Both the position numbers and the translations under genes were made by a program. Positions 294 through 16,502 of a stretch of DNA of 64,000 nucleotides are shown here, piece by piece. The notes under the pieces were generated by a model that saw only the letters and a list, made by a program, of their open reading frames with translations, was not told the origin of the DNA and made no database searches. The stretch's first letter is position 1; the number at the start of each line of letters is the position of its first letter. Source of the stretch: a virus. The DNA is taken from IMG/VR virus record IMGVR_UViG_3300025759_000062, positions 1 to 64,000 of that record. One strand, written 5' to 3'.

Positions 294-497
294 TTACACT
301 TTGGTTTTAAAGGTTTTGTCATACCAATGGCTAATAGCAAATTCATCTGCTGCCATTAGATTACGACACTTATAAGCGAAGTCAACCATCACCTTTTCTT
401 CTTTCTCAAGCAAGTCTGTATTTAGCATCCAAGATTTAAAGTCTGCATCACTCATTAAATTGAAGTTCTCATAAACTTCTTGCATTGGTGTTTTCAT
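294..497 (-). CDS. hypothetical protein, 67 aa
   Basis: This is a small soluble protein with no family I recognise. It is acidic in the first half, has one Cys and ends with a basic stretch. The ATG at 497 overlaps the stop of the upstream 43-residue gene by four bases (ATGA), a typical translational coupling, which supports both genes. It sits in the minus-strand early cluster, last before the unassigned gap at 1-293. Its final codons double as a copy of the dispersed leader repeat. Confidence 0.7.
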   Translation of the reverse strand: MKTPMQEVYENFNLMSDADFKSWMLNTDLLEKEEKVMVDFAYKCRNLMAADEFAISHWYDKTFKTKV

Positions 498-625
498 CTC
501 TCTTTGGTGTTAAAGAATTCAGATAAGTCATCATATAAAGATATAATTTCATTATCAGTTAGTTCACTAACTTGCTGCATTAACGAAGCTCTTAATAACT
601 CTGTTTCTTTATTGTTATCACTCAT
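494..625 (-). CDS. small hypothetical protein, 43 aa
   Basis: Reads MSDNNKETELLRASL and onward to a TGA that overlaps the next ATG in an ATGA junction. It is predicted to be mostly helical and acidic. The ATG at 625 directly follows a copy of the leader repeat TTTAACACCAAAGAGA, which supports this start. No function can be assigned. Support is the coupled stop/start and the leader, not homology. Confidence 0.6.
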   Translation of the reverse strand: MSDNNKETELLRASLMQQVSELTDNEIISLYDDLSEFFNTKER

Positions 626-673
626 TTCTCTTTGGTGTTAAAGGTTTACCCTTACTTTGTGAAAATTTAAGGT

Positions 674-808
674 TCATTGTTGTGAGGATTTGTGATGTTC
701 ATCTTTTACTTCTTCCTTGTCATACATATAGCTTAGGAAACTTATCATCCCAAGGGTTGATAAGCCTCCTGCTACTGCAATCATTAATAATAATATCCAA
801 TCCATCAT
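674..808 (-). CDS. single-pass membrane peptide, 44 aa
   Basis: Starts MMDWILLLMIAVAGG, giving one hydrophobic helix at about residues 3-28, followed by a charged His-rich tail. The ATG at 808 overlaps the TGA of the upstream zinc-ribbon gene (ATGATGG), so it is probably translated by coupling. It is likely an inner-membrane peptide with a short cytoplasmic tail. Small membrane peptides of this kind are common in phage early regions and may act on host envelope functions or superinfection, but nothing in the sequence shows which. Confidence 0.6.
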   Translation of the reverse strand: MMDWILLLMIAVAGGLSTLGMISFLSYMYDKEEVKDEHHKSSQQ

Positions 809-1020
809 TTAAATCTTAAACTTCCTTCTACTGATACAAAGTCTTGTGCACATCTATCACATGAATAGTTATGCTTTGTCATTTGAATAAGCATTGACTC
901 TGTGCAATTAGGGCACAGTTCATTTGTTTTGTATACAGGATATACATCATACATATTTTGTAGATCCATACTTTCTTTTTGTTGCTCTTCTATGAAGAGC
1001 TCTTTCATTCTTCCCATCAT
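805..1020 (-). CDS. zinc-ribbon small protein, 71 aa
   Basis: The C-terminal half contains CPNC at about residues 36-39 and CDRC at about 54-57. This CxxC-x14-CxxC pattern is typical of a zinc ribbon, preceded by an acidic helical N-terminus. Such ribbons usually mediate nucleic-acid or protein contacts; no specific role is visible. The ATG at 1020 overlaps the TAA of the helicase gene upstream (TAATG), so the two are probably co-translated. It may work with the helicase, which is inference from position only. Confidence 0.7.
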   Translation of the reverse strand: MMGRMKELFIEEQQKESMDLQNMYDVYPVYKTNELCPNCTESMLIQMTKHNYSCDRCAQDFVSVEGSLRFK

Positions 1021-2117
1021 TACTCTAAAGGGTTATAGTATTTAATCTTACTCTGATCAAATCCCTTTAGAGCCTTTTCTACCCAATACTCATCTTGTGT
1101 ACCTTTATAACATAGTACATGACAAGTAGCTGTCTCTGTTGGATTTAATCTTAACAAACGGCCAATACGTTGTGCCGTCTTTCTCTCATTACCATACGCA
1201 TGCATGATAATTCCCTGCTTTAGATTAGGTATAGTAACACCTTCACTAAGCTGGAGTACACAAGACATTTTATCTATGCGTCCATCACTAAATAATTCAA
1301 AGTTTTCCTCAGACTTAGGATTGTTAGAATGATAGGAATGTCTGCAGATTCTATCTGCTTGGTCCTGGGTGTTTGCAAATACAATGCATTTAGAACTAAT
1401 GTTGGATAGAATAGATTTGACATATGCCTCTTTACTTGTATAGTCCATAAGAGCTCTCATCCGCATAATAGAAGCAAACTGTTTTTGCTTTGGTGTATTA
1501 GCTTCTTTAACTCTATTGTCTACATATAGATAATCTCTGTATTCTGATGTATACCAGTGACCGCCTTTCTTATTTTTCTTTTTATAAGTTGGTGTTTTAT
1601 CTAATAGCAGGTAATGAACTACAATTTTATAATCATTAAGAATATTGTTATCAGTAGCATCATCTACAGAGAACTCATACTTAATAGGACAGTACTTTTG
1701 CACCATTCTATACTTTTCTGTACCCTTACGTACTGGTGGTGTACCAGTGAGACCAAGAATCTTACCTGAATAAGCAGTTAAGAATGATTCATGGTTCTCT
1801 AGCAAACTATGACACTCATCTAAGTATACAAGCTGATATTCCATTGGATTATGCTTGTTAATAGATAAGTAAGTTGTAAAGGTAAAGTGTGGTTGTAAAT
1901 GTTCAAGATCCATCTTTTCAAGCTCAGTAAGCCAGGCTTCTTTGATAGATAGTTTTGGTATTACAACCAGTGCTTTTATAAATGGATCATAATTCTTTTG
2001 AAAATGTTGAATTGCAATACGTGTTTTACCTACACCCATTGATATTCCTAATCCACAACGGTTATATTCTAATGATGTTTCTAATGCTTTTGATTGTACT
2101 ACTTCTCTATGTGTCAT
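1020..2117 (-). CDS. SF2 (SNF2/DEAD-type) DNA helicase
   Basis: An ATP-dependent superfamily 2 helicase or translocase expected to act in phage DNA replication or recombination. Visible motifs in order: I, GVGKT near residue 28; Ia, VVIPKLS; II, DECH near 100; III, LTGTPP near 124; IV, IVFANTQ near 246; and V-VI, from SEGVTIPN to the arginine-rich AQRIGRLLRLNP near 330. At 365 residues it is compact for the family, with both RecA-like lobes but little accessory sequence. crAss-like phages commonly encode an SNF2-type helicase among early genes, consistent with this position. It is coupled to the zinc-ribbon gene downstream by a TAATG overlap. Confidence 0.9.
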   Translation of the reverse strand: MTHREVVQSKALETSLEYNRCGLGISMGVGKTRIAIQHFQKNYDPFIKALVVIPKLSIKEAWLTELEKMDLEHLQPHFTFTTYLSINKHNPMEYQLVYLDECHSLLENHESFLTAYSGKILGLTGTPPVRKGTEKYRMVQKYCPIKYEFSVDDATDNNILNDYKIVVHYLLLDKTPTYKKKNKKGGHWYTSEYRDYLYVDNRVKEANTPKQKQFASIMRMRALMDYTSKEAYVKSILSNISSKCIVFANTQDQADRICRHSYHSNNPKSEENFELFSDGRIDKMSCVLQLSEGVTIPNLKQGIIMHAYGNERKTAQRIGRLLRLNPTETATCHVLCYKGTQDEYWVEKALKGFDQSKIKYYNPLE

Positions 2118-2118
2118 T

Positions 2119-2325
2119 TTAAAATGTTAACCATTTTAATCTTCTTTGATATTTTCTGATTAAAACAGCATTGTTATTTAGATGTTTTGTAACTCCTTTA
2201 GACCAATTTGATTCTACTTCTGCTCTTATAACAGTATTAATGGTATCAAAGTGTAATTTATGTAGATAATCTCTTACATAATTAAGATGTCTTCTCTTTT
2301 TAAATAAATTTTTAATTCTTTTCAT
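2119..2325 (-). CDS. small basic hypothetical protein, 68 aa
   Basis: Very rich in Lys, Arg and His (starts MKRIKNLFKKRRHLNY), predicted helical, with no recognised motif. The charge suggests nucleic-acid binding. It stops one base before the helicase start, so the two probably share a transcript. The tRNA cluster lies just upstream. Confidence 0.6.
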   Translation of the reverse strand: MKRIKNLFKKRRHLNYVRDYLHKLHFDTINTVIRAEVESNWSKGVTKHLNNNAVLIRKYQRRLKWLTF

Positions 2326-2350
2326 AACAAAATGTTTAGTGAAACATAGG

Positions 2351-2424
2351 TGCTCCCTACAGGGCTTGAACCTGTGACCTACTGATTATGAGTCAGTTGC
2401 TCTGACCAACTGAGCTAAGAGAGC
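2351..2424 (-). tRNA. tRNA-Met (CAT)
   Basis: A cloverleaf is visible on the minus strand. The acceptor stem GCTCTCT pairs with AGGGAGC including one G-U, the D-arm is GCTCAGTTGGTCAGAGC, the anticodon stem ACTGA/TCAGT encloses the loop CTCATAA, and the T-arm is ACAGG-TTCAAGC-CCTGT. The CCA end is not encoded. A CAT anticodon is normally Met, but could read Ile if the host modifies the wobble base. Confidence 0.92.
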
Positions 2425-2428
2425 TAAG

Positions 2429-2514
2429 TAGCCGGAGTGGGACTTGAACCCACACGGGTATTACTACCCAACAGATTTTAAGTCTGTCATGTCTACCACT
2501 TCCATCATCCGGCC
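2429..2514 (-). tRNA. tRNA-Leu (TAA)
   Basis: A class II tRNA with a long variable arm (GGGTAGTAATACCC). The anticodon stem ACAGA/TCTGT encloses CTTAAAA, the T-arm is GTGGG-TTCAAGT-CCCAC, and the acceptor GGCCGGA pairs with TCCGGCT with a G-U at the closing pair. TTA is the dominant Leu codon in the late genes, so this tRNA matches phage demand. Confidence 0.92.
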
Positions 2515-2520
2515 ATCTAG

Positions 2521-2594
<74 letters not shown>

Positions 2595-2601
2595 AATGTT
2601 G

Positions 2602-2826
2602 TTAATCTATATTCTTCTTCCAGAATCTAGTGTATTTACCATTCTCCTCAATAATAATGATGTTTCCGTGTATATCCACAACAGTAATTGTGTCAACTCT
2701 CTCAAAATTTTCTTGATGTTTATTCTCAACGTACTCATGATCTTGAAATAATACTACAATTGTACCTACAATTATAATCATTATAAGAGACCATAAAGTA
2801 AATTTAAATAAGCTTTCCTTATCCAT
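2602..2826 (-). CDS. single-pass membrane protein, 74 aa
   Basis: A short cytoplasmic N-terminus (MDKESLFKFT) is followed by one transmembrane helix at about residues 9-28 and an outward-facing tail of about 45 residues containing a beta-rich VDTITVVDIHGNIIIIEENG stretch. This is probably an inner-membrane protein with a small periplasmic domain. No family is recognised. It overlaps the HNH gene upstream by one base (2826), so it belongs to the same operon. Confidence 0.65.
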   Translation of the reverse strand: MDKESLFKFTLWSLIMIIIVGTIVVLFQDHEYVENKHQENFERVDTITVVDIHGNIIIIEENGKYTRFWKKNID

Positions 2827-3230
2827 TAGTCTATTCTTTTTTCAGAAAACCCAAGTTCTTCTGCTTCAGCCGGATGTTCCTCTATATACATATGACAGTG
2901 TCTACATACAGATAGCCAAGTACTAACCATAAGATGATATTGACCTCTGCCTTTTTTGTGATGAACATCTGTTGACTGCCCTGTACATCCAGGTAATGCA
3001 GCTTCACACATTGGTTTCTCCTCCATAAACTTTTTTCTAAGTTTACTGTAAGCTAAATCAATGATTTGCATTGTCTTAGACTTCTTGTTGATTGGTTTTC
3101 TTTTAAGTGGTTTATTTTCTTGCCTATACTTATACCAGCAATTCTTGCAATACCGGCTACCTTTATCATTTTTCCAGATAAACTGCTCAGTATTGCAATT
3201 ATTGCATAGTTTCTTTTTCTTCTCAATCAT
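2826..3230 (-). CDS. HNH endonuclease family protein
   Basis: A zinc-bearing N-terminal segment (CNNC and CKNC at about residues 9-12 and 28-31) is followed by an HNH-type core: a CEAALPGC knuckle at about 75-82, DVHHKKGRG at about 88-96 providing the catalytic His, and CRHCHMYIEEHP at about 109-120. It cuts or nicks DNA with one divalent metal. Phage HNH proteins may act in packaging, as free-standing homing nucleases, or in host DNA degradation. The early, minus-strand position, away from the terminase, argues against a packaging partner. It overlaps the neighbouring gene at 3227 by four bases. Confidence 0.85.
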   Translation of the reverse strand: MIEKKKKLCNNCNTEQFIWKNDKGSRYCKNCWYKYRQENKPLKRKPINKKSKTMQIIDLAYSKLRKKFMEEKPMCEAALPGCTGQSTDVHHKKGRGQYHLMVSTWLSVCRHCHMYIEEHPAEAEELGFSEKRID

Positions 3231-3739
3231 TTTACAGTCAAAAAGTTTTTGGGCAATAAGCCTTTCTTCATGTAGAATAAGATTAAATCTTCATAAGTTA
3301 AACCAAGATCTTTAAAACTTAGTTTGTTTACATATGTAGGATCTATTTCATCTACAGGGATAGAATTAATCTGTCTTCCTAGCTCTGTGGTGTTAAAGAT
3401 ACTAAAAATTTGCATAGCTTTTTTGTTAGTAATTACTTGCTTCCAAGCATTTACCTCTCTTTGTCCACGTTGCCAGACTTTTTTGATTCTTCTTTTCTTA
3501 TCCCAATGAAGTTTACTCACTTGTTCAGGAGTATAAACATTTAAACCGTGCAACACTCTTTTGAATAAGAAGTGCTGTGTTGGATTGAGTTTAGTGTAAT
3601 CTAAACGTTGTGCTATAAGTTCAGGTTGAGTTTGATACTCACTCAGTATACCCAAGTACTCATAACGTTCTTTGCGTGCTTGTAATTCAGCTATTTGCTG
3701 CTCAAGCTTAAGGATTTGTTTTTGTTCATTAGAAAGCAT
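3227..3739 (-). CDS. hypothetical protein with N-terminal coiled coil
   Basis: 170 residues. Residues 4-30 form a heptad-like coiled coil (EQKQILKLEQQIAELQAR), followed by a basic helical middle (DKKRRIKKVWQRGQREVN) and a hydrophilic C-terminal domain. There is no known motif. A basic helical protein with a dimerising N-terminus could bind DNA, but this is a guess. The ATG at 3739 lies just downstream of the intrinsic terminator at 3761-3797, so a new transcript may begin here. It is coupled with the HNH gene by a four-base overlap. Confidence 0.7.
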   Translation of the reverse strand: MLSNEQKQILKLEQQIAELQARKERYEYLGILSEYQTQPELIAQRLDYTKLNPTQHFLFKRVLHGLNVYTPEQVSKLHWDKKRRIKKVWQRGQREVNAWKQVITNKKAMQIFSIFNTTELGRQINSIPVDEIDPTYVNKLSFKDLGLTYEDLILFYMKKGLLPKNFLTVK

Positions 3740-3760
3740 GTTTAAGTATATTAATTAGGT

Positions 3761-3797
3761 GAAAATAAAAAGAGGGCCGGTATTTCTACCAGCCCTC
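3761..3797 (-). terminator. intrinsic terminator, minus strand
   Basis: On the minus strand GAGGGCTGGTA, loop GAAA, TACCGGCCCTC gives an 11-bp stem with one G-U, followed by TTTTTATTTT. It lies downstream of the gene at 3870-4442 and upstream of the 170-residue gene, so it separates two minus-strand units. Confidence 0.85.
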
Positions 3798-3804
3798 ATA
3801 AAAG

Positions 3805-3865
3805 GTTTACTCTAAGCGCGCTGTTCCCTGTATTATTTCAACAGTTGGTGGGAAGCGGAGTAAAC
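3805..3865 (-). ncRNA. structured 3' UTR element
   Basis: A perfect 8-bp inverted repeat, GTTTACTC (3805-3812) and GAGTAAAC (3858-3865), encloses a second perfect 5-bp repeat, CTGTT (3821-3825) and AACAG (3840-3844). It lies between a stop codon (3870-3872) and an intrinsic terminator (3761-3797). The pair could form a stable 3' end or a 3' UTR-derived small RNA. Only the pairing is seen; a function is not shown. Confidence 0.4.
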
Positions 3866-3869
3866 GTGT

Positions 3870-4442
3870 TTATAACTCAAAAGTGGCATCCTCTAGTTCT
3901 TCTTCTACCACTTCTTCTTCAGCTTCAGCTTGAACCTCTGCTATTGAGTCTTCAAGATCCACTTGCTTATCATTCTCAAATGCTTCTTCTACAGTAGCAT
4001 TTTTGATTTTATTACCATTATCTTCATTATTTGCTTCACGGATTGCATCACCATTATCGTGTGCTACAAGTACATCCTCTGCTCCTGTATCAGCAGTGTA
4101 CATTGTTTTCCTATAAATAGGTTGTCCGTCTTGGCAACAAATGATACCAGTATTACCAGCAATCTTAAGATCTCTATCAGGATCATTGTTGCTAAATGGC
4201 TCTAATGATTCTCTAATTACAATCTTACCTGGTAATTCTTTCATGTTTTGAATACCCATTTCTCTTAGGTCTTCAACTTTACCGTGTAATAGTGTACTAA
4301 CTGTTTTACGGCTTACCCATCCTGTGTTACCAAAAGTCACTCTTTCTTGTTGTAGTCTTACATGACCATACTCACTGTTGTTTTGAGACACACGGATTAC
4401 GCTCCCTAATTCATCAGGGATAATTTGAACTTTGTTTTGCAT
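3870..4442 (-). CDS. hypothetical protein with acidic C-terminal tail
   Basis: 190 residues. The N-terminal half is beta-rich and resembles small DNA-binding folds only in general shape (starts MQNKVQIIPDELGSVI). The last 40 residues are strongly acidic (AEEEVVEEELEDATFEL) and end with an aromatic and Leu. An acidic tail tipped with an aromatic is a feature of phage and bacterial single-strand DNA-binding proteins, so an SSB-like role is possible, but I do not recognise an OB-fold signature. It has its own terminator downstream, suggesting high expression. Confidence 0.7.
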   Translation of the reverse strand: MQNKVQIIPDELGSVIRVSQNNSEYGHVRLQQERVTFGNTGWVSRKTVSTLLHGKVEDLREMGIQNMKELPGKIVIRESLEPFSNNDPDRDLKIAGNTGIICCQDGQPIYRKTMYTADTGAEDVLVAHDNGDAIREANNEDNGNKIKNATVEEAFENDKQVDLEDSIAEVQAEAEEEVVEEELEDATFEL

Positions 4443-4466
4443 TTTTTAAATTATAAAAGGTTAAAC

Positions 4467-4742
4467 TTATATGTCATCTGGGTGAAAGTAATCATCTTCT
4501 AATTTTTCATTTGGATCTATTTCAAATAAATCTGGTTCAAAGTCATCATCTGATAGTAGTTCTTTTACTACTGTCTTATCTTCATTATTACCATTTGCAA
4601 ATAAACTATAAAAAGGATTGCTACACTCAAGACTATATGCTGAACTTAAACCATTAAGCTCTTTAACCTCTATATCATCCAGTTCTAGGAACTGCTCTAC
4701 AGAAAGTTCAATTATACGTCCATTTGGTAACTGATATATCAT
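4467..4742 (-). CDS. acidic hypothetical protein, 91 aa
   Basis: Very acidic (for example LSDDDFEPDLFEIDPNEKLEDD) with a short hydrophobic N-terminus, and no recognised family. Strongly acidic small early proteins are often DNA mimics or inhibitors of host nucleic-acid enzymes; here that is only a suggestion from charge. An inverted repeat ACAAC-aata-GTTGT at 4749-4762 sits seven bases before the ATG and may be an operator or leader hairpin. Confidence 0.65.
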   Translation of the reverse strand: MIYQLPNGRIIELSVEQFLELDDIEVKELNGLSSAYSLECSNPFYSLFANGNNEDKTVVKELLSDDDFEPDLFEIDPNEKLEDDYFHPDDI

Positions 4743-4820
4743 TTCATTACAACAATAGTTGTAAATTTAAAAATATAAAAGCTATTATAGAAGTATAATT
4801 AAGAGCTTATAGTATATGTT

Positions 4821-4837
4821 CTGCAAATAATTAGCAG
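4821..4837 (-). other. small hairpin between minus-strand genes
   Basis: CTGC (4821-4824) pairs with GCAG (4834-4837) around an AT-rich loop, downstream of the helix-turn-helix gene that ends at 4853. There is no T-tract, so it is a weak terminator candidate at best. The rest of 4743-4852 is AT-rich with no gene. Confidence 0.25.
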
Positions 4838-4852
4838 TATATAGCTAAGTAT

Positions 4853-5110
4853 TTATCTTAGAATTAATTTTCTACCCTGTCTTCTTATGTATTTCTTATC
4901 TTTTAGTTCTTTTAATAGTATTGCTGTGTATCTTACTGTAATATTGCAGTGATCTGCCATAGTGTTCCTTGATGGAAAGCACTCTCTATTTTTATCAGCG
5001 TATGTACACAAAAAACTATAAAGTCCCTTAGCTTGAATACTTAATTCAGGGTCTTGTAATACATCTTGACTGACAATACCAAACTTCTTAGTGTACGACA
5101 TGTCTATCAA
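4853..5110 (-). CDS. helix-turn-helix protein (HTH_36-like, replication initiator-like)
   Basis: After about 20 residues comes a winged-helix core: LSIQAKGLYSFLCTYADKN, then CFPSRNTMADHCNITVRYT as the helix-turn-helix, then LLKELKDKKYIRRQGRK as the recognition region and wing. This pattern is found in the N-terminal domain of plasmid and phage replication initiators and DnaD-like proteins. At 85 residues it is only the DNA-binding domain, so it may be a repressor or an initiator fragment. The listed start is a TTG at 5110; the ATG at 5101 gives MSYTKKFG and is equally plausible. Confidence 0.75.
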   Translation of the reverse strand: MIDMSYTKKFGIVSQDVLQDPELSIQAKGLYSFLCTYADKNRECFPSRNTMADHCNITVRYTAILLKELKDKKYIRRQGRKLILR

Positions 5111-5285
5111 GAATTAATCTAGTGGCTGTAAACCATGATGAGGTATCAGCCAATTCAGTATCTCTCATATGATACCGTTTATTCATATAGCTTCCAAAGC
5201 TATGAACTTGTTTTTGATAAAGCCTCTTCAAGGTTCCCCACTTCTTTATCTCCGATCTGAGTAGATGTTTGTTTATTCTTGCCAT
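5088..5285 (-). CDS. doubtful small ORF, 65 aa
   Basis: An open frame overlapping the 182-residue gene by 86 bases and the helix-turn-helix gene by 23. The product is basic with no recognised motif. The long overlap with a better-supported gene makes the full-length version unlikely; an internal ATG near 5183 would give about 31 residues without the large overlap. Listed because it fills the gap between two genes. Confidence 0.25.
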   Translation of the reverse strand: MARINKHLLRSEIKKWGTLKRLYQKQVHSFGSYMNKRYHMRDTELADTSSWFTATRLILDRHVVH

Positions 5286-5748
5286 TGTTTAAACTTGTAA
5301 AGTATTTTATATCACTCTTATCAACTTTAGTTACACTTAATGTGTGTACTTTGTGTTCATGGTAAGATAATTTACCCTCATCATCATGATATAGAAACTT
5401 AACTCTAACTGTACCATAGTAAGGATTGTACTTAGATGAATAAGAACCGTCTTCTGTTACTATAGCATACACCATATCTGTATCAGGACATATCAAACCC
5501 ATCTCTTTTAATGTATCATAGTTAAAATAAGTCTTAGCATGATAAGAATCTATCTCGGTTTTGATATAGTCACCACGGTTTATAAGTTGTAGTGGTTTAT
5601 CATCACTAAGCATATCAACGATATACTCCAAAGAATCTGAATCTAATAAAGAAATTATAGCCTTAATAGCATGATCATAATTTACATGATCTTCCTTAAG
5701 CAGTGATTTAAAGATGTTAAAGATTGTTTTATTTGTTACTCTATGCAT
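5200..5748 (-). CDS. hypothetical protein, 182 aa
   Basis: Helical N-terminus (residues 1-55), then a beta-rich middle (YAIVTEDGSYSSKYNPYYGTVRVKFLY) and a polar C-terminal tail. No family is recognised. The intergenic region immediately upstream (5749-5966) carries an unusual inverted-repeat structure and two operator-like boxes, so this gene may be specifically regulated. Confidence 0.65.
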   Translation of the reverse strand: MHRVTNKTIFNIFKSLLKEDHVNYDHAIKAIISLLDSDSLEYIVDMLSDDKPLQLINRGDYIKTEIDSYHAKTYFNYDTLKEMGLICPDTDMVYAIVTEDGSYSSKYNPYYGTVRVKFLYHDDEGKLSYHEHKVHTLSVTKVDKSDIKYFTSLNNGKNKQTSTQIGDKEVGNLEEALSKTSS

Positions 5749-5767
5749 TATTATTAATTTTTAAATA

Positions 5768-5861
5768 GAAAGATAACTTGCCTGGCTGCGTAACCAGCTT
5801 ACGTCCCTGTTTAACACTTACGTTAACAAACCAAAACCAAAAGAGGAACAAGTTATCTTTC
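5768..5861. ncRNA. candidate structured RNA closed by a 13-bp stem
   Basis: GAAAGATAACTTG (5768-5780) and CAAGTTATCTTTC (5849-5861) are perfect inverted repeats 68 bases apart. Inside are two more hairpins: CTGG/CCAG around an 8-base loop (5782-5797) and TTAAC/GTTAA around a 6-base loop (5811-5826). The whole can fold as a three-way junction. It has no open frame and no T-tract. The strand is uncertain; the surrounding operon reads minus. It may be a small RNA, a 5' UTR element or a cruciform. Confidence 0.5.
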
Positions 5862-5884
5862 ATCACCTAAACATACTCACAATA

Positions 5885-5960
5885 GGAACTATAGTTCCCT
5901 ATAACAATAGTATATATAATAATAATATACTGGTACTGTTAGGGGGAACTATATTTCCCT
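5885..5960. promoter_or_regulatory. paired operator-like boxes
   Basis: GGAACTATAGTTCCCT (5885-5900) contains a perfect 14-bp palindrome, and GGAACTATATTTCCCT (5945-5960) repeats it with one change, 60 bp away. Between them AGTATAT and ATATACT form a further inverted repeat in a very AT-rich stretch. The palindrome suggests a dimeric DNA-binding protein, and the AT-rich centre a promoter. It lies upstream of the minus-strand gene starting at 5748 and downstream of the one ending at 5967. Confidence 0.4.
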
Positions 5961-5966
5961 TTTCAT

Positions 5967-6554
5967 TTATGTATATAAAGACTCTGCAATAAAAACGTCT
6001 TTACCTTTAATCATTCTAATCTTATTGCAGAAGTCTTTACTACTTCCATTCTCACGTATGATAGATTTAAATCTTTTCATATGTATCCTGGCTTGATCAA
6101 CAATCCTAATGTTCTCAAAATGTCCTAAAGCAACAAACTCATCATAAAATAATGTGTTTGTTATTGACACACCACCCATTTGGTCTATGTGTAGTTCTGA
6201 TTTATTATCATAAATACCAGTTGGACTCTGATTTTGTAGATTGTATTTACCATTTTCAGTTATCTTCTTGTAAAATGCTTCCATGTATTTTGTTGGTAAT
6301 GCATGTACAGTGATAGATATCTCACTTTTGTTTGACTCAAAATTGTAGTTAAAGTATATCCAAGCATCATAGTATTGATTCATTATAGTGAGATAAGAAG
6401 TTTTATCTTCATATGCACCATAAGTAATACTACCAAGATGTCCTTTGAATAGTCTGTTTCTATCAAATTTCATTATGGTCTTAGCATATCCGTTTAAAGG
6501 TCTTTTGCTTTTACCTTTAATTTCTTCAATATACTTCTTTAGTATTTTGTCCAT
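5967..6554 (-). CDS. hypothetical protein, 195 aa
   Basis: A mixed alpha/beta protein without recognised motifs. The N-terminus is basic and helical (MDKILKKYIEEIKGKSKRP) and the middle is beta-rich. It overlaps the 41-residue gene upstream by 16 bases. It belongs to the minus-strand early cluster and no function can be assigned. Confidence 0.65.
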   Translation of the reverse strand: MDKILKKYIEEIKGKSKRPLNGYAKTIMKFDRNRLFKGHLGSITYGAYEDKTSYLTIMNQYYDAWIYFNYNFESNKSEISITVHALPTKYMEAFYKKITENGKYNLQNQSPTGIYDNKSELHIDQMGGVSITNTLFYDEFVALGHFENIRIVDQARIHMKRFKSIIRENGSSKDFCNKIRMIKGKDVFIAESLYT

Positions 6555-6664
6555 GATATCTCAAGCATTACAAATGGTATACATATGGCAATACGATTTC
6601 TTTGCCAAGCAATACCTAATCCTAAGAATGATGCCCATTGAAGTTCAAAGTTTAAATTTTTCAT
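6539..6664 (-). CDS. small hydrophobic peptide, 41 aa
   Basis: Starts MKNLNFELQWASFLGLGI and ends SWTKY before a TAA. It has moderate hydrophobicity that could span or lie on the membrane. It follows directly after the terminator at 6683-6710 and overlaps the next gene by 16 bases, consistent with a coupled leader gene. Evidence is positional only. Confidence 0.45.
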   Translation of the reverse strand: MKNLNFELQWASFLGLGIAWQRNRIAICIPFVMLEISWTKY

Positions 6665-6682
6665 GATTATGTTTTTTAAGTG

Positions 6683-6710
6683 AAAAAAAAAGAGCACCGT
6701 TAAGTGCTCT
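6683..6710 (-). terminator. intrinsic terminator, minus strand
   Basis: AGAGCAC-TTAACG-GTGCTCT followed by a run of nine T on the minus strand. It ends the transcript of the 49-residue gene at 6718-6867. Confidence 0.9.
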
Positions 6711-6717
6711 GTTAAAG

Positions 6718-6867
6718 TTAAATTTTTATTTCCCTGGATTCACCATCATAGCATTTCATTAGGATTCTTTTCTGATCCGTTCTGTCTATTGCATGTTCAA
6801 GAGAGGGTGTAATAAATTCTGACCCATCTCTAAAATAGATGTAAGTACATTCTTTATCTTCTTCCAT
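6718..6867 (-). CDS. small hypothetical protein, 49 aa
   Basis: Reads MEEDKECTYIYFRDGSEF and onward, a compact alternating beta/alpha peptide. It is bounded by a hairpin upstream (6897-6928) and a strong terminator directly downstream (6683-6710), so it looks like a single-gene unit. There is no recognised family. Confidence 0.6.
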   Translation of the reverse strand: MEEDKECTYIYFRDGSEFITPSLEHAIDRTDQKRILMKCYDGESREIKI

Positions 6868-6896
6868 GATTAAAAGTATTTCCAGCTAATGTATAT

Positions 6897-6928
6897 AACA
6901 GGTAAGACTTATACAAATCCTACCTGTT
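6897..6928 (-). terminator. hairpin downstream of the 98-aa gene
   Basis: AACAGGTA (6897-6904) pairs perfectly with TACCTGTT (6921-6928) five bases beyond the stop of the gene at 6933-7229. The following bases are ATATAC rather than a T-run, so it may be an RNA-stabilising hairpin or a weak terminator. Confidence 0.4.
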
Positions 6929-6932
6929 AAAA

Positions 6933-7229
6933 TTAAAATGAGAGTGTATAATTTAAGTAGCTACCATCATCTTGGTGATAGTCTCCAACTTCAATTAAAT
7001 CATCTTCAAGAGCAATCTCACGCAAACCAATGTTGCTGTGTAGCTCTCCTACAAGCTGCTCATATGTCAACTTGTAATCTAATGTGTGTGTTTTGACACG
7101 TTTGTAATCTCCGTCTTGGTTACGGATTACACTAAAGTTTCCAAAGTGGCCTGGTGAATCAGGTACTAAGGTTACTACTTTGTCTGAATGTTTAACAAAC
7201 AATTGTGGGTGTACAATGTAAATACGCAT
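6933..7229 (-). CDS. hypothetical protein, 98 aa
   Basis: Beta-rich and slightly acidic, starting MRIYIVHPQLFVKHSDKVVTL. It looks like a compact single-domain protein without Cys. No family is recognised. Higher use of C-ending codons than its neighbours suggests good expression. It is followed by the hairpin at 6897-6928. Confidence 0.65.
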   Translation of the reverse strand: MRIYIVHPQLFVKHSDKVVTLVPDSPGHFGNFSVIRNQDGDYKRVKTHTLDYKLTYEQLVGELHSNIGLREIALEDDLIEVGDYHQDDGSYLNYTLSF

Positions 7230-7262
7230 AATAAAAAATGTTTTAGGTGATTAATGTTTCAG

Positions 7263-7487
7263 TTAATACTCATACCATTCTTCAGGAGCCAATGTAAACG
7301 GTTCATCTTTATACCATATTACAGTGGCAATACCAGTGGTATCAGCAACAATTTGACAACGATCTGTATAAACTACAGTGTTCTCTTCCGGTGAATAGTA
7401 CTCAATACCTTCATCATGTATACGACCATATTGAAATGATGCATAACACATAATGAATACTACCAAGTACCAGTAGTATCTTTCCAT
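7263..7487 (-). CDS. membrane-anchored small protein, 74 aa
   Basis: An N-terminal hydrophobic helix at about residues 4-20 (YWYLVVFIMCYASFQYG) is followed by an acidic, Tyr-rich domain with two Cys. It may be an inner-membrane anchored periplasmic protein or an uncleaved signal anchor. Its function is unknown. The structured region 7552-7799 lies upstream. Confidence 0.6.
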   Translation of the reverse strand: MERYYWYLVVFIMCYASFQYGRIHDEGIEYYSPEENTVVYTDRCQIVADTTGIATVIWYKDEPFTLAPEEWYEY

Positions 7488-7551
7488 ACAATTTTGTTTT
7501 AGGTGTTATAAGTGTGTGAGATATTATTTCAACCCCACACACATATGTCTT

Positions 7552-7799
7552 ACACAGTAGGTACCTACCTTGTGTCCTGGATTAAGACTCACATAGTTTA
7601 ACAATTTGATTCCAGGTAACGTTATTACTAATACTAATTACTTCCTATCAATAAGGTTTAGGGTGCTACCCTTGGCCTCTGACCCCTTATTCTTGCAACG
7701 CGTTTACTGAGACTCTCTTTCTTAGTCTCACGGAAATAATTAGTACCTATAACTGCAGATTGTTTTAGATAGGCCTCTCTTGACCAGTTGGCAGTTATA
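7552..7799 (-). ncRNA. candidate structured noncoding RNA, about 250 nt
   Basis: The only stretch over 300 bases without a gene in the left arm (7488-7811). Five stem-loops follow one another: ACACA+GTAGGT/ACCTAC+TGTGT (7552-7575); CCTGGA/TCCAGG (7576-7616); AGGGT/ACCCT with a GCT loop (7660-7672); TGAGACT/AGTCTCA with a 9-base loop (7708-7730); and TATAACTGC/GCAGTTATA (7748-7799). The density of perfect stems and a GC content above the flanks argue for an RNA gene. I do not recognise tRNA, tmRNA or self-splicing intron signatures. The minus strand is assumed from the operon. Confidence 0.5.
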
Positions 7800-7811
7800 T
7801 TTTATTTAGGG

Positions 7812-8012
7812 TTAATAACTCTCATAATAGTCTACTGATACTATTGCGGATGGAACCCATCCAACAATAAGCATGAACACACCATATGCCGGGTGTACTA
7901 ATACTTCTCTATATGATACAGTAGAAGATAGTACATAGATAAGTAAGCCAAGTAATGTATATGTAAGTAACATAGTACCAATGGCAATAAGCATTGTCTT
8001 AGTAGCTTTCAT
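7812..8012 (-). CDS. two-helix membrane protein, 66 aa
   Basis: I choose the ATG at 8012 (MKATKTMLIAIGTML) instead of upstream starts that would add an implausible His/Cys-rich extension. Two hydrophobic helices lie at about residues 7-28 and 42-58, with a short acidic tail (DYYESY). This is probably a small inner-membrane protein; size and topology would also fit a holin-like or superinfection-exclusion protein, though the endolysin is in the other arm. No family is assigned. Confidence 0.55.
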   Translation of the reverse strand: MKATKTMLIAIGTMLLTYTLLGLLIYVLSSTVSYREVLVHPAYGVFMLIVGWVPSAIVSVDYYESY

Positions 8013-8138
8013 AGCTATATTTATATATTTAAGTGATACAATAAGTAGAGTGTGTAAGAAAGTGGGTATATGTGGTGTTTTTGACCACACATTCACAATG
8101 CAACACACAAATAAATAGTTTTTGCAGTGAAATAATAA

Positions 8139-8164
8139 GTGCAAGGGCTTTTACACCCCTGCAC
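8139..8164 (-). terminator. hairpin terminator after first duplicated gene
   Basis: On the minus strand GTGCAGGGG and CCCTTGCAC pair around the loop TGTAAAAG (8148-8155), followed by TTATTATTT. It lies just past the stop at 8174. The loop is identical to that of the hairpin after the paralogous gene (8572-8593) although the stems differ. Confidence 0.75.
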
Positions 8165-8173
8165 TGCAATTTC

Positions 8174-8449
8174 TTAGTGTGCCCAGTATAAGTTGGGTAC
8201 AACTTCACCAGTAATGTTGTTTACTACTGGCTTATCTGTGATTTCAAGTGGCAACTTGTCACCTACTTGTAGCTTCATAGAAGCGGCTAACTTGGCATCA
8301 ATTGCCGTAAAGCCAAATTTCACATCTTCAGTTTGTACACGTACTGGTACTTCAATTCCGCCAATTTGTTTTGTTTCCATTGTTTGGCTCAATGGAGCAG
8401 TGCTGGTTACTATACCTTTGCCAGTCTGCGTGAACTTGTAAAAATACAT
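8174..8449 (-). CDS. duplicated early protein, copy A (91 aa)
   Basis: The ATG at 8449 (MYFYKFTQT) is chosen because it aligns exactly with copy B at 8600-8887. The two proteins share most residues, for example KGIVTST, VEVPVR, DVKFGFTAI, LQVGDKLPLE and TGEVVPNLYWAH. The sequence is beta-rich and could be an OB or beta-barrel fold, though I recognise no named family. Codon use is richer in C and G ends than the surrounding genes, and the gene has its own hairpin terminator, both pointing to high early expression. Copy A lacks a short insert (about residues 44-47) present in B. Confidence 0.85.
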   Translation of the reverse strand: MYFYKFTQTGKGIVTSTAPLSQTMETKQIGGIEVPVRVQTEDVKFGFTAIDAKLAASMKLQVGDKLPLEITDKPVVNNITGEVVPNLYWAH

Positions 8450-8571
8450 ATGCTTTTGTTTTATGATTAATAGCATGATGTGGCTGGGGAGAGGGATAAA
8501 TAGTGTCTGTAGCAAGTGTGTGAGTGGGATAATATGTGAGGGGTAATAAGTCCCTGTAGCAGGTTTCCTTT

Positions 8572-8593
8572 GGGGAAGCTTTTACACTTCCCC
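8572..8593 (-). terminator. hairpin after second duplicated gene
   Basis: GGGGAAG and CTTCCCC pair perfectly around the loop TGTAAAAG (8579-8586), with an outer CC/GG pair further out. No T-run follows, so read-through into copy A is likely. The same eight-base loop is found at 8148-8155. Confidence 0.55.
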
Positions 8594-8599
8594 TTTGGC

Positions 8600-8887
8600 T
8601 TAGTGAGCCCAGTACAGGTTAGGTACTACCTCTCCTGTTACGTTGTTCACCACCTGCTTGTCAGTCAACTCCAATGGGAGCTTATCACCAACTTGCAGAT
8701 TCATCTTGCTTGCTAGCTCAGGGCTAATAGCAGTAAATCCAAACTTAACATCTCCTGTTGCACCAGTCTGTTCTCTGACTGGTACTTCTACACCACCAAT
8801 CATCTTGGTAGTAGTGTTAAGTCCTGTGAGAGGCTCTGTGCTTGTGACAATGCCTTTCTTTGTTTGAGTGAATTTGTAAAAATACAT
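8600..8887 (-). CDS. duplicated early protein, copy B (95 aa)
   Basis: Paralogue of the gene at 8174-8449, in tandem and the first gene of the minus-strand arm. It is a beta-rich protein with an invariant C-terminus TGEVVPNLYWAH and no Cys. As the gene nearest the divergent control region it is probably transcribed first on infection. Possible roles include nucleic-acid binding, host takeover or anti-defence, but nothing in the sequence selects among them. Duplication of a highly expressed early gene can reflect dosage or functional split. Confidence 0.85.
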   Translation of the reverse strand: MYFYKFTQTKKGIVTSTEPLTGLNTTTKMIGGVEVPVREQTGATGDVKFGFTAISPELASKMNLQVGDKLPLELTDKQVVNNVTGEVVPNLYWAH

Positions 8888-9054
8888 AAGCGTATATGTT
8901 TAAATGATAGGTACCACTTGTGCGGGGGTACCCTAACCGCGTAATGTTGCTGGGGAGTTGTATAGTATGACCCTCTCAGAACTTAAAACACACAAATTTT
9001 GCAGTACCGTGGGGGCATTGTTGAAAAATAATTCTCTCTGGTAGAGGAGCAGAT

Positions 9055-14081: not shown

Positions 14082-14313
14082 AGAAGCACAAAGAACAATA
14101 CCAGGTACTAGTATTATAATTCCAGATTCAGCATTAGAAAAAGTTTATCAAGGTTATGTAATAGCCGTGGGTGCTGAAGTAGAAGAGATCAAGATAGGAA
14201 ATCTTATTCAATATGCTGATTACTGTGTACCAACTGAAATGAAACATGAAGGAGAAGATCATTACTTGATTAATGCAGGTGATGTATTTGCAGTAATTGA
14301 GACTATTGATTAA
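14032..14313 (+). CDS. GroES-like co-chaperonin (Cpn10)
   Basis: The 93 residues follow the Cpn10 fold throughout: VPVGKKVLIKPKEAQ (residues 6-20) matches the family's first strands. PGTSIIIPDSALEK (about 24-37) is the mobile-loop region that binds GroEL, with the hydrophobic triplet III. YQGYVIAVGAEVEEIKIGNLIQY (40-62) matches GEVVAVG...VKVGDxVLF, and YLINAGDVFAVIE (79-91) matches the C-terminal DILAxxE. Phage T4 gp31 is a known co-chaperonin that adapts GroEL for its capsid protein; a similar role in capsid folding is likely here. The ATG overlaps no large gene and the TAA overlaps the terminase ATG. Confidence 0.88.
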   Translation: MKTRIVPVGKKVLIKPKEAQRTIPGTSIIIPDSALEKVYQGYVIAVGAEVEEIKIGNLIQYADYCVPTEMKHEGEDHYLINAGDVFAVIETID

Positions 14314-16502
14314 TGTTTATTGAAATCCCAACATATAAATCCGGAGTATGGACAACCACTTCTTTTGAAACAAGAGAAGACTTCACTGATTTTATATTTT
14401 CTATATTTAAAGAACCGGGATTATATAACTTCAATGAAACAGCTTTTTTGTTTAATCAAGAAGCTAGAAACTTCAACAAAGATGGTTTTTATTGTGGTGC
14501 TCCTTTTAGATCTAGGGATTTTATAAACTACTGGGATGATCAAAAGAATAAATGCCGTGTAGGAGTTATTTACAAAGATAAATCTAATACATGGTTTCTT
14601 ACCAGAGATTATTACATGTGGTTAAACTTTCTTCCAATCTATGATAAAGAAGAGAAGAAGTATGGTTTTGCTAAAGTAAGGGATGCTCAATATCATATGG
14701 CTCTTTATGAGCTATTAGCTGAGCTTAACTATAAGCACTCTGCTATTCTAAAGAAACGTCAGATTGCATCCTCTTACTTTCACATGGGTAAGATTATTAA
14801 TACGTACTGGTTTGAAGAAGGTAGTACGTGTAAAATTGGTGCATCACTAAAAGATTATATAAATGATAAAGGCTCATGGAAGTTCCTAGATGAATATAAG
14901 ACATTTCTTAATGAGCATACTGCCTGGTATAGGCCCAGTAACCCAGAGAAAGTTCTATTGTGGCAACAACAGATTGAGGTGAAAGTTGGCAATAGAAAAA
15001 CATCTAGAGGTCTTAAATCTAAAATACAGGGTGCTTCCTTTGAGAAAAACGCTACAACGGGTGTAGGTGGTCCAACAACTTACTTCTTTCATGAGGAGGC
15101 AGGTATTGCACCTAAGATGATGCAGACCTATGAGTATTTACGTCCTGCAATGTCATCAGGCATGGTTACAACTGGTATGTTCATAGCAGCTGGTTCTGTG
15201 GGTGATCTGGATCAGTGTGAACCTCTTAAGGATATGATACTAAATCCTACAGCAAATGATATATATGCTGTAGAAACTAATTTAATGGATGCTGATGGTA
15301 CAATCAACATGGCTGGTTTGTTTATACCAGAACAATGGTCTATGCCACCACACATTGATAAGTATGGTAATTCACTTATAGAACAAGCATTAGAAGCTAT
15401 TAGATTAGAAAGAAAGAAATGGAAAGCTGATCTTAATCCAGAACAATATCAATTACGTATTTCACAGAAACCAACTAATATTGCTGAAGCTTTTGCTTAT
15501 AGAAAAGAATCTGTTTTTCCACAAGGTATATTATCTAAACAACTTAAGAAGATTGAAGACAAAGAGTATGCATATGAGCATATTGAACTTGAAAGAACGC
15601 AAGCAGGAATAGAAGCAAAGCGTTCACAGAAACTTCCTATATCAGAGTTTCCTGTAAATAAAAAAGCACAGGATAAAACTGGTTGTTTAGTTGTATGGGA
15701 AAGACCTGTAGCTAATCCTGAGTTTGGTGCTTATTATGCTTCTATTGACCCCGTATCAGAAGGTAAGACAACTACATCAGATTCTTTGTGTAGCATATTT
15801 GTTTATAAGAATTCTGTAGAGATTACAAGAGAAACTCCAGCTGGATTAGAGCAGTTTATTGAACCAGCCAAAATTGTAGCTGCCTGGTGTGGTAGATATG
15901 ATGATATCAATAAAACACATGAGCAGTTAGAGTTAATTATAGAATGGTATAATGCTTGGACTCTTGTTGAGAATAACATATCTCTTTTTATACAGCACAT
16001 GATTGCCAAGAAGAAACAAAAATATCTTGTACCTAAACAACAGATTTTGTTTTTAAAAGATCTAGGTAGTAATAGAACCGTATATCAAGAATACGGCTGG
16101 AAGAATACTGGTACTTTATTTAAAAGTCATTTGATATCTTATGCAATTGAGTTCCTTAGAGAAGAGATTGATATAGAAACAGATCAAGATGGTAATGTAT
16201 TAAGTAATACTTTAGGTATTGAAAGAATACCAGATCCTATGCTTCTAAAAGAAATGTTAGCTTATTACCCTGGGTTAAACGTGGATAGATTGGTGGCTTT
16301 CTCTGCTTTGGTAGCTTTTGCCAAAATTCAAGAGTCAAACCGTGGATATTTGAAAAGAAGAGAGTCAGAATCAGATAATTCCTTGGATAATTCAAAAAAT
16401 TTGTATAAATTAAAGTATAGTCCGTTTAAAAATTTAGGCCGGGGTAAAACTAGTATTGGTGGTAAAAAAATTAAAAGGTCTGCCTACAAAAATTTTAGAT
16501 AA
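14313..16502 (+). CDS. terL: terminase large subunit
   Basis: The ATP-driven DNA packaging motor with a nuclease domain, 729 residues. The ATPase half holds KKRQIASSYFHMGK near residue 148 in the place of the Walker A loop, GLKSKIQGASFEKN near 235 and YFFHEEAG near 255 as the Walker B with catalytic Glu. The nuclease half starts at YASIDPVSEG near 475 (first metal-binding Asp of the RNase H fold) and has further acidic positions toward NVDRLVAFSALVAF near 655. The Walker A is not the classical GxxxxGK[ST], as in several large terminase families of Bacteroidota phages. It lies directly before the portal. Confidence 0.93.
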   Translation: MFIEIPTYKSGVWTTTSFETREDFTDFIFSIFKEPGLYNFNETAFLFNQEARNFNKDGFYCGAPFRSRDFINYWDDQKNKCRVGVIYKDKSNTWFLTRDYYMWLNFLPIYDKEEKKYGFAKVRDAQYHMALYELLAELNYKHSAILKKRQIASSYFHMGKIINTYWFEEGSTCKIGASLKDYINDKGSWKFLDEYKTFLNEHTAWYRPSNPEKVLLWQQQIEVKVGNRKTSRGLKSKIQGASFEKNATTGVGGPTTYFFHEEAGIAPKMMQTYEYLRPAMSSGMVTTGMFIAAGSVGDLDQCEPLKDMILNPTANDIYAVETNLMDADGTINMAGLFIPEQWSMPPHIDKYGNSLIEQALEAIRLERKKWKADLNPEQYQLRISQKPTNIAEAFAYRKESVFPQGILSKQLKKIEDKEYAYEHIELERTQAGIEAKRSQKLPISEFPVNKKAQDKTGCLVVWERPVANPEFGAYYASIDPVSEGKTTTSDSLCSIFVYKNSVEITRETPAGLEQFIEPAKIVAAWCGRYDDINKTHEQLELIIEWYNAWTLVENNISLFIQHMIAKKKQKYLVPKQQILFLKDLGSNRTVYQEYGWKNTGTLFKSHLISYAIEFLREEIDIETDQDGNVLSNTLGIERIPDPMLLKEMLAYYPGLNVDRLVAFSALVAFAKIQESNRGYLKRRESESDNSLDNSKNLYKLKYSPFKNLGRGKTSIGGKKIKRSAYKNFR

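What the first reader, a model, noticed from the sequence alone, without database searches (positions are those of the whole stretch)
7552..7799. 250-base stretch of consecutive stem-loops with no gene
Seen: five perfect or near-perfect stems follow each other over 248 bases in the largest gap of the left arm, including TGAGACT/AGTCTCA and TATAACTGC/GCAGTTATA. There is no open frame. The composition is less AT-rich than the flanking gaps. It does not match tRNA, tmRNA or intron signatures that I can recognise. Inference: a phage noncoding RNA acting early in infection, possibly binding host proteins or ribosomes.
Basis: partly seen in the sequence, partly recalled or inferred. Interest (0 to 1): 0.55.

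Follow-up and report, generated by a model that had tools for sequence, protein, structure and literature searches.

The report
Conserved folded RNA in crAss-like phages
A gap between genes in an aquatic crAss-like phage holds a small RNA whose knotted fold is kept in related viruses, at a place where other relatives carry a different conserved RNA, so these phages seem to reserve a spot for an RNA whose job is still unknown.

Summary
The stems are real and exceed chance. Relatives show that the conserved part is only about 7546-7636, read on the minus strand with the left-arm genes. It folds as an H-type pseudoknot (P1, P2) with an inserted hairpin (P3). All 20 pairs hold in all 7 sequences found (the window and 6 IMG/VR contigs), and each helix has a pair changed on both sides; random placement of the same changes does this in 2 of 200,000 trials. 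G-U pairs favour the minus strand. No Rfam, tRNA or phage-collection match, and no conserved ORF, explains it. Neighbouring genes change around the RNA, so it does not belong to one gene. Some relatives without it carry in the same place a second, unrelated three-way-junction RNA (41 viral stretches, strong covariation, no Rfam match); in 19 of 19 records holding it and terL it lies opposite terL, on its 5' side. Best reading: a stand-alone early phage RNA acting in trans, probably by binding a protein (inferred). Main rival: a cis-acting element of the early operon. Transcription could not be tested.

The parts
7546..7636 (-). Conserved RNA core (RNA A): pseudoknot with conserved bases before it
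   Evidence: Found in 6 IMG/VR contigs besides the window; alignment A2; pairs counted
7611..7616 (-). P1, 5' strand (CCUGGA)
   Evidence: Pairs with 7576-7581; A-U here, G-C in L098
7576..7581 (-). P1, 3' strand (UCCAGG)
7584..7588 (-). P2, 5' strand (GUCUU), crosses P1 to make the pseudoknot
   Evidence: U-A in the window where all six others have C-G
7547..7551 (-). P2, 3' strand (AAGAC)
   Evidence: U-G pair in L007
7552..7575 (-). P3 hairpin, RCACA/UGUGY with invariant palindrome GUAGGUACCUAC
   Evidence: A-U, G-U and G-C at its first pair across lineages
7510..7546 (-). Hairpin just after the core (GUGUGUG/CACACAC), terminator-like but without a full U run here
   Evidence: Folded; the counterpart in L006 and L009 is followed by 7-8 U
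7632..7745 (-).
   Evidence: z -5.1 on minus, -4.4 on plus; no blastn match in other loci
7748..7799 (-). Further hairpin of the variable domain (TATAACTGC/GCAGTTATA)
   Evidence: z -1.1 on minus, -2.1 on plus
7263..7487 (-). Downstream 74-aa gene (unknown); not next to RNA A in all lineages
   Evidence: no Pfam or PADLOC match
7812..8024 (-). Upstream 70-aa gene, membrane-like; upstream of RNA A in the window and L009, downstream in L006 and L010

Best explanation
The stretch holds a phage-encoded structured noncoding RNA read on the minus strand within the left-arm operon. Shown: a conserved core (7546-7636) that folds as an H-type pseudoknot (P1, P2) with an inserted hairpin P3, kept by compensatory changes, on a strand indicated by G-U pairs, at a place where the neighbouring genes change. 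Inferred: it is made early in infection with the left operon, is ended or released at the 3' hairpin, and acts in trans as a compact folded RNA that binds a phage or host protein through its invariant parts (the GUAC-capped palindromic hairpin and the unpaired AUCA and AA joining bases). The unconserved 5' domain (7632-7799) would be a lineage-specific stabilising or spacer fold. Some relatives without this RNA carry another conserved RNA in the same place, which suggests that the place, rather than one RNA, is what is kept. I hold 'a real conserved RNA' at about 0.9 and 'acts in trans by binding a protein' at about 0.5; the figure below is for the whole.
For: All 140 cells of 20 pairs hold in 7 sequences, one double change in each of P1, P2 and P3; slid structures pair 26-44%. 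The same changes placed at random keep all pairs and give three double changes in 2 of 200,000 trials. As plus-strand RNA 4 cells would be A-C. The core is 81-86% identical to L009, L010, L006 and L098 while the 170 nt before it align at 57-60% with many gaps. Genes around the RNA change order or identity, so it is not the leader of one gene. In L006 and L009 a hairpin with 7-8 U follows at once. One copy in the window's whole record. RNA B holds the same place in other lineages.
Against: No transcript is shown. Seven sequences are about five lineages, so changes are few. Against L009, the closest relative, a coding gene (5967-6554) is more alike (92%) than the core (83%). As a nested fold the core is no more stable than shuffles (z about 0). 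Strand and place in the operon are constant, which also suits a cis role. Six of seven variable columns in 59-100 fall on third positions of one reading frame (read off A2). 13 of the terL loci that reach this far have neither A nor B by these models (loci). No protein partner was found.
Confidence: 0.5

Rival explanations
1. A cis-acting RNA element of the early left operon: it lets the polymerase read through terminators further down, or attenuates, processes or protects the operon transcript.
For: Same strand and about the same distance from terL in every carrier looked at; terminator-like hairpins with U runs lie between left-arm genes, for example 6710-6691 and 8165-8138 on minus and just after the core in L006 and L009. 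RNA B lies 16-70 nt before a start codon in several loci (distances read off).
Against: The first gene after the RNA differs in every lineage. No alternative antiterminator pairing shared by the lineages was seen (by eye). RNA B lacks a terminator after it in the sequences read.
Confidence: 0.28
2. A DNA-level element: part of a replication origin (perhaps an RNA primer or hairpin origin), or a hairpin promoter for the virion RNA polymerase as known for phage N4 (recalled).
For: It lies close to where GC skew changes sign and gene direction diverges; crAss-like early genes are read by an injected polymerase (PMC10136315, passages); P3 contains a perfect 12-base palindrome.
Against: G-U/A-C asymmetry points to the minus, mRNA-like strand, not the template strand of the left operon. 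P1 and P2 form a pseudoknot, unlike a simple hairpin promoter. RNA B's junction strands are invariant although unpaired.
Confidence: 0.1
3. A conserved short peptide, SLNPGHKVGTYC(V/A)R on the minus strand, not an RNA structure.
For: Six of seven variable columns in 59-100 of A2 are third codon positions of that frame, and the loop differs by 3 nt between two groups (read off).
Against: The loop of L098 is out of frame (25 nt against 21 or 24); the codon at the possible start is GTG, ATG or GTA; the frame ends differently in each lineage (read off). 8 of 14 third positions never vary. Conservation runs on upstream out of any shared frame, and P1's change in L098 is compensated.
Confidence: 0.07
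4. Chance stems in a decaying gap; no function.
For: The 5' stems (7632-7799) are not conserved, and only the window's copy is exceptionally stable.
Against: Core conservation and compensation in 7 of 7; stems and energy exceed shuffles.
Confidence: 0.03

Closest known systems
RNA B of related phages (found here, unnamed, not in Rfam)
   Same: Same strand, same place in the left operon, the same families of neighbouring genes in several records, similar core size, never seen in the same record as RNA A
   Different: Three-way junction with other invariant bases; no convincing sequence similarity; far more common (41 viral stretches against 6)
H-type pseudoknots with an inserted hairpin (recalled: preQ1-II and preQ1-III riboswitches; P3/P7/P8 of group I introns)
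   Same: Helix order P1a-P2a-P1b-hairpin-P2b
   Different: No Rfam match; no fixed downstream gene; no unpaired J8/7-like strand and no P4-P6 between the strands
Phage RNA elements that modify the polymerase in cis (recalled: put of HK022)
   Same: Structured RNA near the start of an early phage operon that contains terminators
   Different: Pseudoknot rather than two hairpins; cis action untested
Type III antitoxin RNAs (recalled: ToxI)
   Same: Small RNA pseudoknot
   Different: No tandem repeat units and no toxin-like gene beside it
Ro/TROVE-bound Y RNAs
   Same: Small structured RNA; crAss001 expresses a TROVE protein early (PMC10136315, passage)
   Different: No TROVE protein in 34 of 34 records searched

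Membership tests
Any Rfam 15 family | Match at the gathering score | tested here: not met
   Window: only three tRNAs elsewhere; nothing near the thresholds at 7200-8200; 0 in L006, L009, L010, L052, L098
tRNA / tmRNA | ARAGORN fold | tested here: not met
   Genes only at 2349-2594 in the window; none in L006, L007, L009, L010, L098
Group I intron | P4-P6 domain, J8/7 and splice sites in a host gene | tested here: not met
   Sequence between P1a and P2a is 21-25 nt and there is no base between P3 and P2b; intergenic; no Rfam match
Gene-specific riboswitch (preQ1-II/III kind) | Constant regulated gene downstream | tested here: not met
   Next gene is a 74-aa, a ParB-like, a 57-aa or a 67-aa gene in different lineages
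Gene-specific riboswitch (preQ1-II/III kind) | Ligand binding | not testable with these tools
   Needs an assay
Type III toxin-antitoxin RNA | Tandem repeats upstream of a ToxN-like gene | tested here: not met
   No repeat array in the gap; nine left-arm and neighbour genes have no toxin match in PADLOC, ten none above cut-off in Pfam
Y RNA | TROVE protein in the genome | tested here: not met
   0 of 34 records, several of them fragments; the host was not tested
RNA B | Match to model R2 or its conserved motif | tested here: not met
   0 of 1 at E <= 10 in the window's record; 0 of 6 A records at E <= 0.001; motif in 0 of 7 A records
Processive antitermination element | Read-through of downstream terminators in cis | not testable with these tools
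   Needs transcription assays

The most novel reading that the evidence does not exclude
Aquatic crAss-like phages keep a fixed place near the start of the early operon for a structured RNA, and at least two unrelated RNAs (the pseudoknot RNA A and the three-way-junction RNA B) fill it in turn and do the same job early in infection: non-homologous replacement of an RNA gene.
Probability: 0.35. Interest if true: 0.75.

Novelty: new variant of a known kind. Interest (0 to 1): 0.58.

Why it matters
No noncoding RNA other than tRNAs turned up for crAss-like phages in the papers searched here. RNA A and the wider RNA B give two defined, covariation-supported RNAs at one conserved place beside the early genes of an abundant phage order. 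Whether these phages need an RNA at that step, and which protein or polymerase it works on, becomes directly testable.

Tried and rejected
Phage collection, DNA search of 7000-9000 and of the core: no credible match (the ten hits have E of 3 or more and cover at most 40%). One genome contigs match (L102, Clostridiales) has neither P1 nor P2 partners and was dropped as chance. A relaxed pattern in viral contigs gave 19 stretches, 6 of them A contigs already known; the 13 others have no R1 match at E <= 10. Another pattern found 4 of the 6.

R1 over 90 of the loci then held plus the window: besides the window and L098 (both in the model) only weak hits. L034 999-1096 (E 0.82; 0.008 within its own record) lies at a similar place but shares only P1-like pairing and has no counterpart in the loci held; not counted.

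The gap of L052 and L017: 95% alike over 186 nt, but the surrounding 436 nt are 94% alike too and the fold is ordinary (z -0.5), so this looks like recent exchange.

Neighbour protein 8600-8887 as an RNA-binding partner: model of mean pLDDT 66.5, no structural match at E <= 0.001; inconclusive. TROVE/Y RNA idea: not supported. ParB-like gene of L009 as partner: PHROG match 3.7e-19, but it is not next to RNA A in the other lineages.

Full report
What was checked. The window is the first 64 kb of a 117,277-base virus record. TerL (14313-16502) matches PHROG 6681; in the phage collection 137 records match, all below 60% identity, mostly uncultured crAss-like, Bacteroides, Flavobacterium and Cellulophaga phages, so this is a distant crAss-like phage. 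The left arm (about 300-8900) is coded on the minus strand, the next genes on the plus strand, and GC skew changes sign at about 8 kb. The finding lies in the largest left-arm gap, 7488-7811.

Five perfect stems of 7 or more pairs against 1.24 in shuffles, 4 of 500 as many; fold energy z -2.8 (+) and -3.4 (-). The strongest local structure is 7632-7745 (z -5.1 on minus). The core 7546-7630 is not unusual as a nested fold (z about 0), because its structure is a pseudoknot, which the folding program cannot write.

Relatives. Among 94 loci fetched with three proteins of the window, a blastn of the gap finds the core in 6 loci from 4 contigs; a seventh hit (L034, E 0.32) is chance. A pattern scan of viral contigs adds 2 contigs; three other patterns add none (with 87). 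That makes 6 contigs plus the window: L006, L007, L009, L010, L098, L101. L006, L007 and L101 are nearly identical here, so there are about five lineages. TerL identity to the window is 93-94% in four of these and 70% in L098 (L101 was not in that call).

Structure. On the minus strand the core reads P1a (CCUGGR), a linker of 21-25 nt, P2a (GYCUU), AA, P1b (YCCAGG), P3 hairpin (RCACA-AR-GUAG[GUAC]CUAC-UGUGY), P2b (RAGRC), with no unpaired base between P1b, P3 and P2b. All 140 cells pair; P1, P2 and P3 each have one pair changed on both sides; structures slid by 1-3 columns pair 26-44%. Eight columns vary in the conserved part, seven of them paired. Random placement of these changes keeps every pair in 4,774 of 200,000 trials, and does so with three double changes in 2. 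Read as plus-strand RNA, 4 cells would be A-C. Conserved bases also precede P1 (UUANUAA..CGUUW). Results against: six of the seven variable columns in 59-100 are third codon positions of one frame (SLNPGHKVGTYC), so a short peptide was considered; its frame is broken in L098, it has no constant start or end, and 8 of 14 third positions never vary (read off). Against L009 the core (83%) is less alike than one coding gene (92%).

Context. In five lineages the genes on either side differ although the families are shared: the 70-aa membrane-like gene is upstream in the window and L009 and downstream in L006 and L010; a ParB-like gene follows in L009 only (PHROG 12305, E 3.7e-19). A hairpin follows the core within about 15 nt in the lineages folded; in L006 and L009 it ends in 7-8 U, in the window, L010 and L098 it does not. 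The 5' neighbourhood is not conserved: window 7641-7811 has no match in any other locus, and the 120-200 nt before the core have z -3.6 to -4.0 in the window, -2.4 to -3.0 in L006, -1.1 to -2.0 in L098, -0.6 to -0.8 in L009 and +0.1 to -0.9 in L010.

A second RNA in the same place. Blasting the counterpart gap of L015 gave conserved stretches in L080, L074 and L048. A 20-base pattern finds this RNA B in 41 viral stretches, and the model R2 finds it again in all 41. In 21 distinct sequences (of 27 distinct found; the cut-off and some near-duplicate ones left out) 98.8% of 426 cells pair, 8 of 21 pairs have changes on both sides, and 39 cells do, against 13.2 in shuffles, 0 of 500 as many. It is a three-way junction with invariant joining strands. 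No Rfam match; no match in the phage collection. Of 27 records searched for both, 21 carry B; TerL is found in 19 of these, and in all 19 B lies on the opposite strand, 3.3-9.4 kb on the 5' side of the TerL start (my arithmetic; starts extrapolated where TerL matched in part). Four of the 19 have TerL only about 30% identical. RNA A sits the same way, 6.2-6.7 kb from terL, in the window, L006, L007, L009 and L010. In several records B lies between homologues of window genes 8600 and 7812 or 6933. The B motif, up to 2 mismatches, is in 0 of 7 A records; R1 over 18 B records gives no match better than E 0.09. L030 has a reduced B without P2 and P3 (E 1.6e-5). 13 terL loci that reach at least 8.6 kb to the left (L017, L033, L034, L035, L040, L047, L052, L058, L064, L069-L072) have neither A nor B by these models, so the place is not always filled by a known type.

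Interpretation. That A is a real conserved RNA is well supported; how it works is not shown. A review says that crAss-like early and middle genes are read by an injected RNA polymerase and that a skew inversion separates the replication side from the structural side (PMC10136315, passages), so an early RNA is plausible. Because the first neighbours change while strand and place stay, I favour a stand-alone RNA acting in trans over the leader of one gene; an operon-wide cis element is the main rival. No protein partner was found: the conserved neighbour protein gave no reliable fold, and no TROVE protein is present in 34 records.

Novelty. No such RNA in crAss-like phages was seen in searches (listings), nor in passages of PMC10136315 and PMC12118408. 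The library lacks most subscription journals. Known RNA types named as closest are recalled, except for the Rfam results.

Noticed in passing
L015:2851-2934 (-), L080:1489-1574 (-), L048:1981-2068 (-), L074:2332-2461 (-), and L103-L143: RNA B: a three-way-junction RNA of about 75 nt (longer with a P3 insert), in 41 viral stretches, strong covariation, not in Rfam, always opposite terL on its 5' side in 19 of 19 records.
   Followed up: yes
L030:3479-3531 (-): Reduced RNA B that lacks P2 and P3 but keeps P1 and both joining strands, E 1.6e-5; suggests that the junction strands are the working part.
   Followed up: partly
L034:about 2035-2085 (-): tRNA-like piece with an acceptor stem and a canonical-looking T arm but a short linker in place of the D and anticodon arms (read by eye); ARAGORN finds no tRNA there.
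   Followed up: no
L006:3331, L009:3130 and 3499, L010:3584 and 3963, L034:1258 and 1573 (+ coordinates): Repeated intergenic element GCAGTTTNNANACATNCTNAGGT; on the minus strand often a hairpin before a U run, terminator-like; absent from the window.
   Followed up: partly
window 8174-8449 and 8600-8887 (-): Tandem copies of a small protein family (78% identical) that also stands near RNA A or B in relatives; no Pfam or PHROG match.
   Followed up: partly
window 2349-2594 (-): Cluster of three tRNA genes: Met (cat), Leu (taa), Arg (tct).
   Followed up: no
window 5967-6554 (-): 195-aa protein with a weak match to one PADLOC candidate defence model, PDC-M60A (E 4.7e-5).
   Followed up: no
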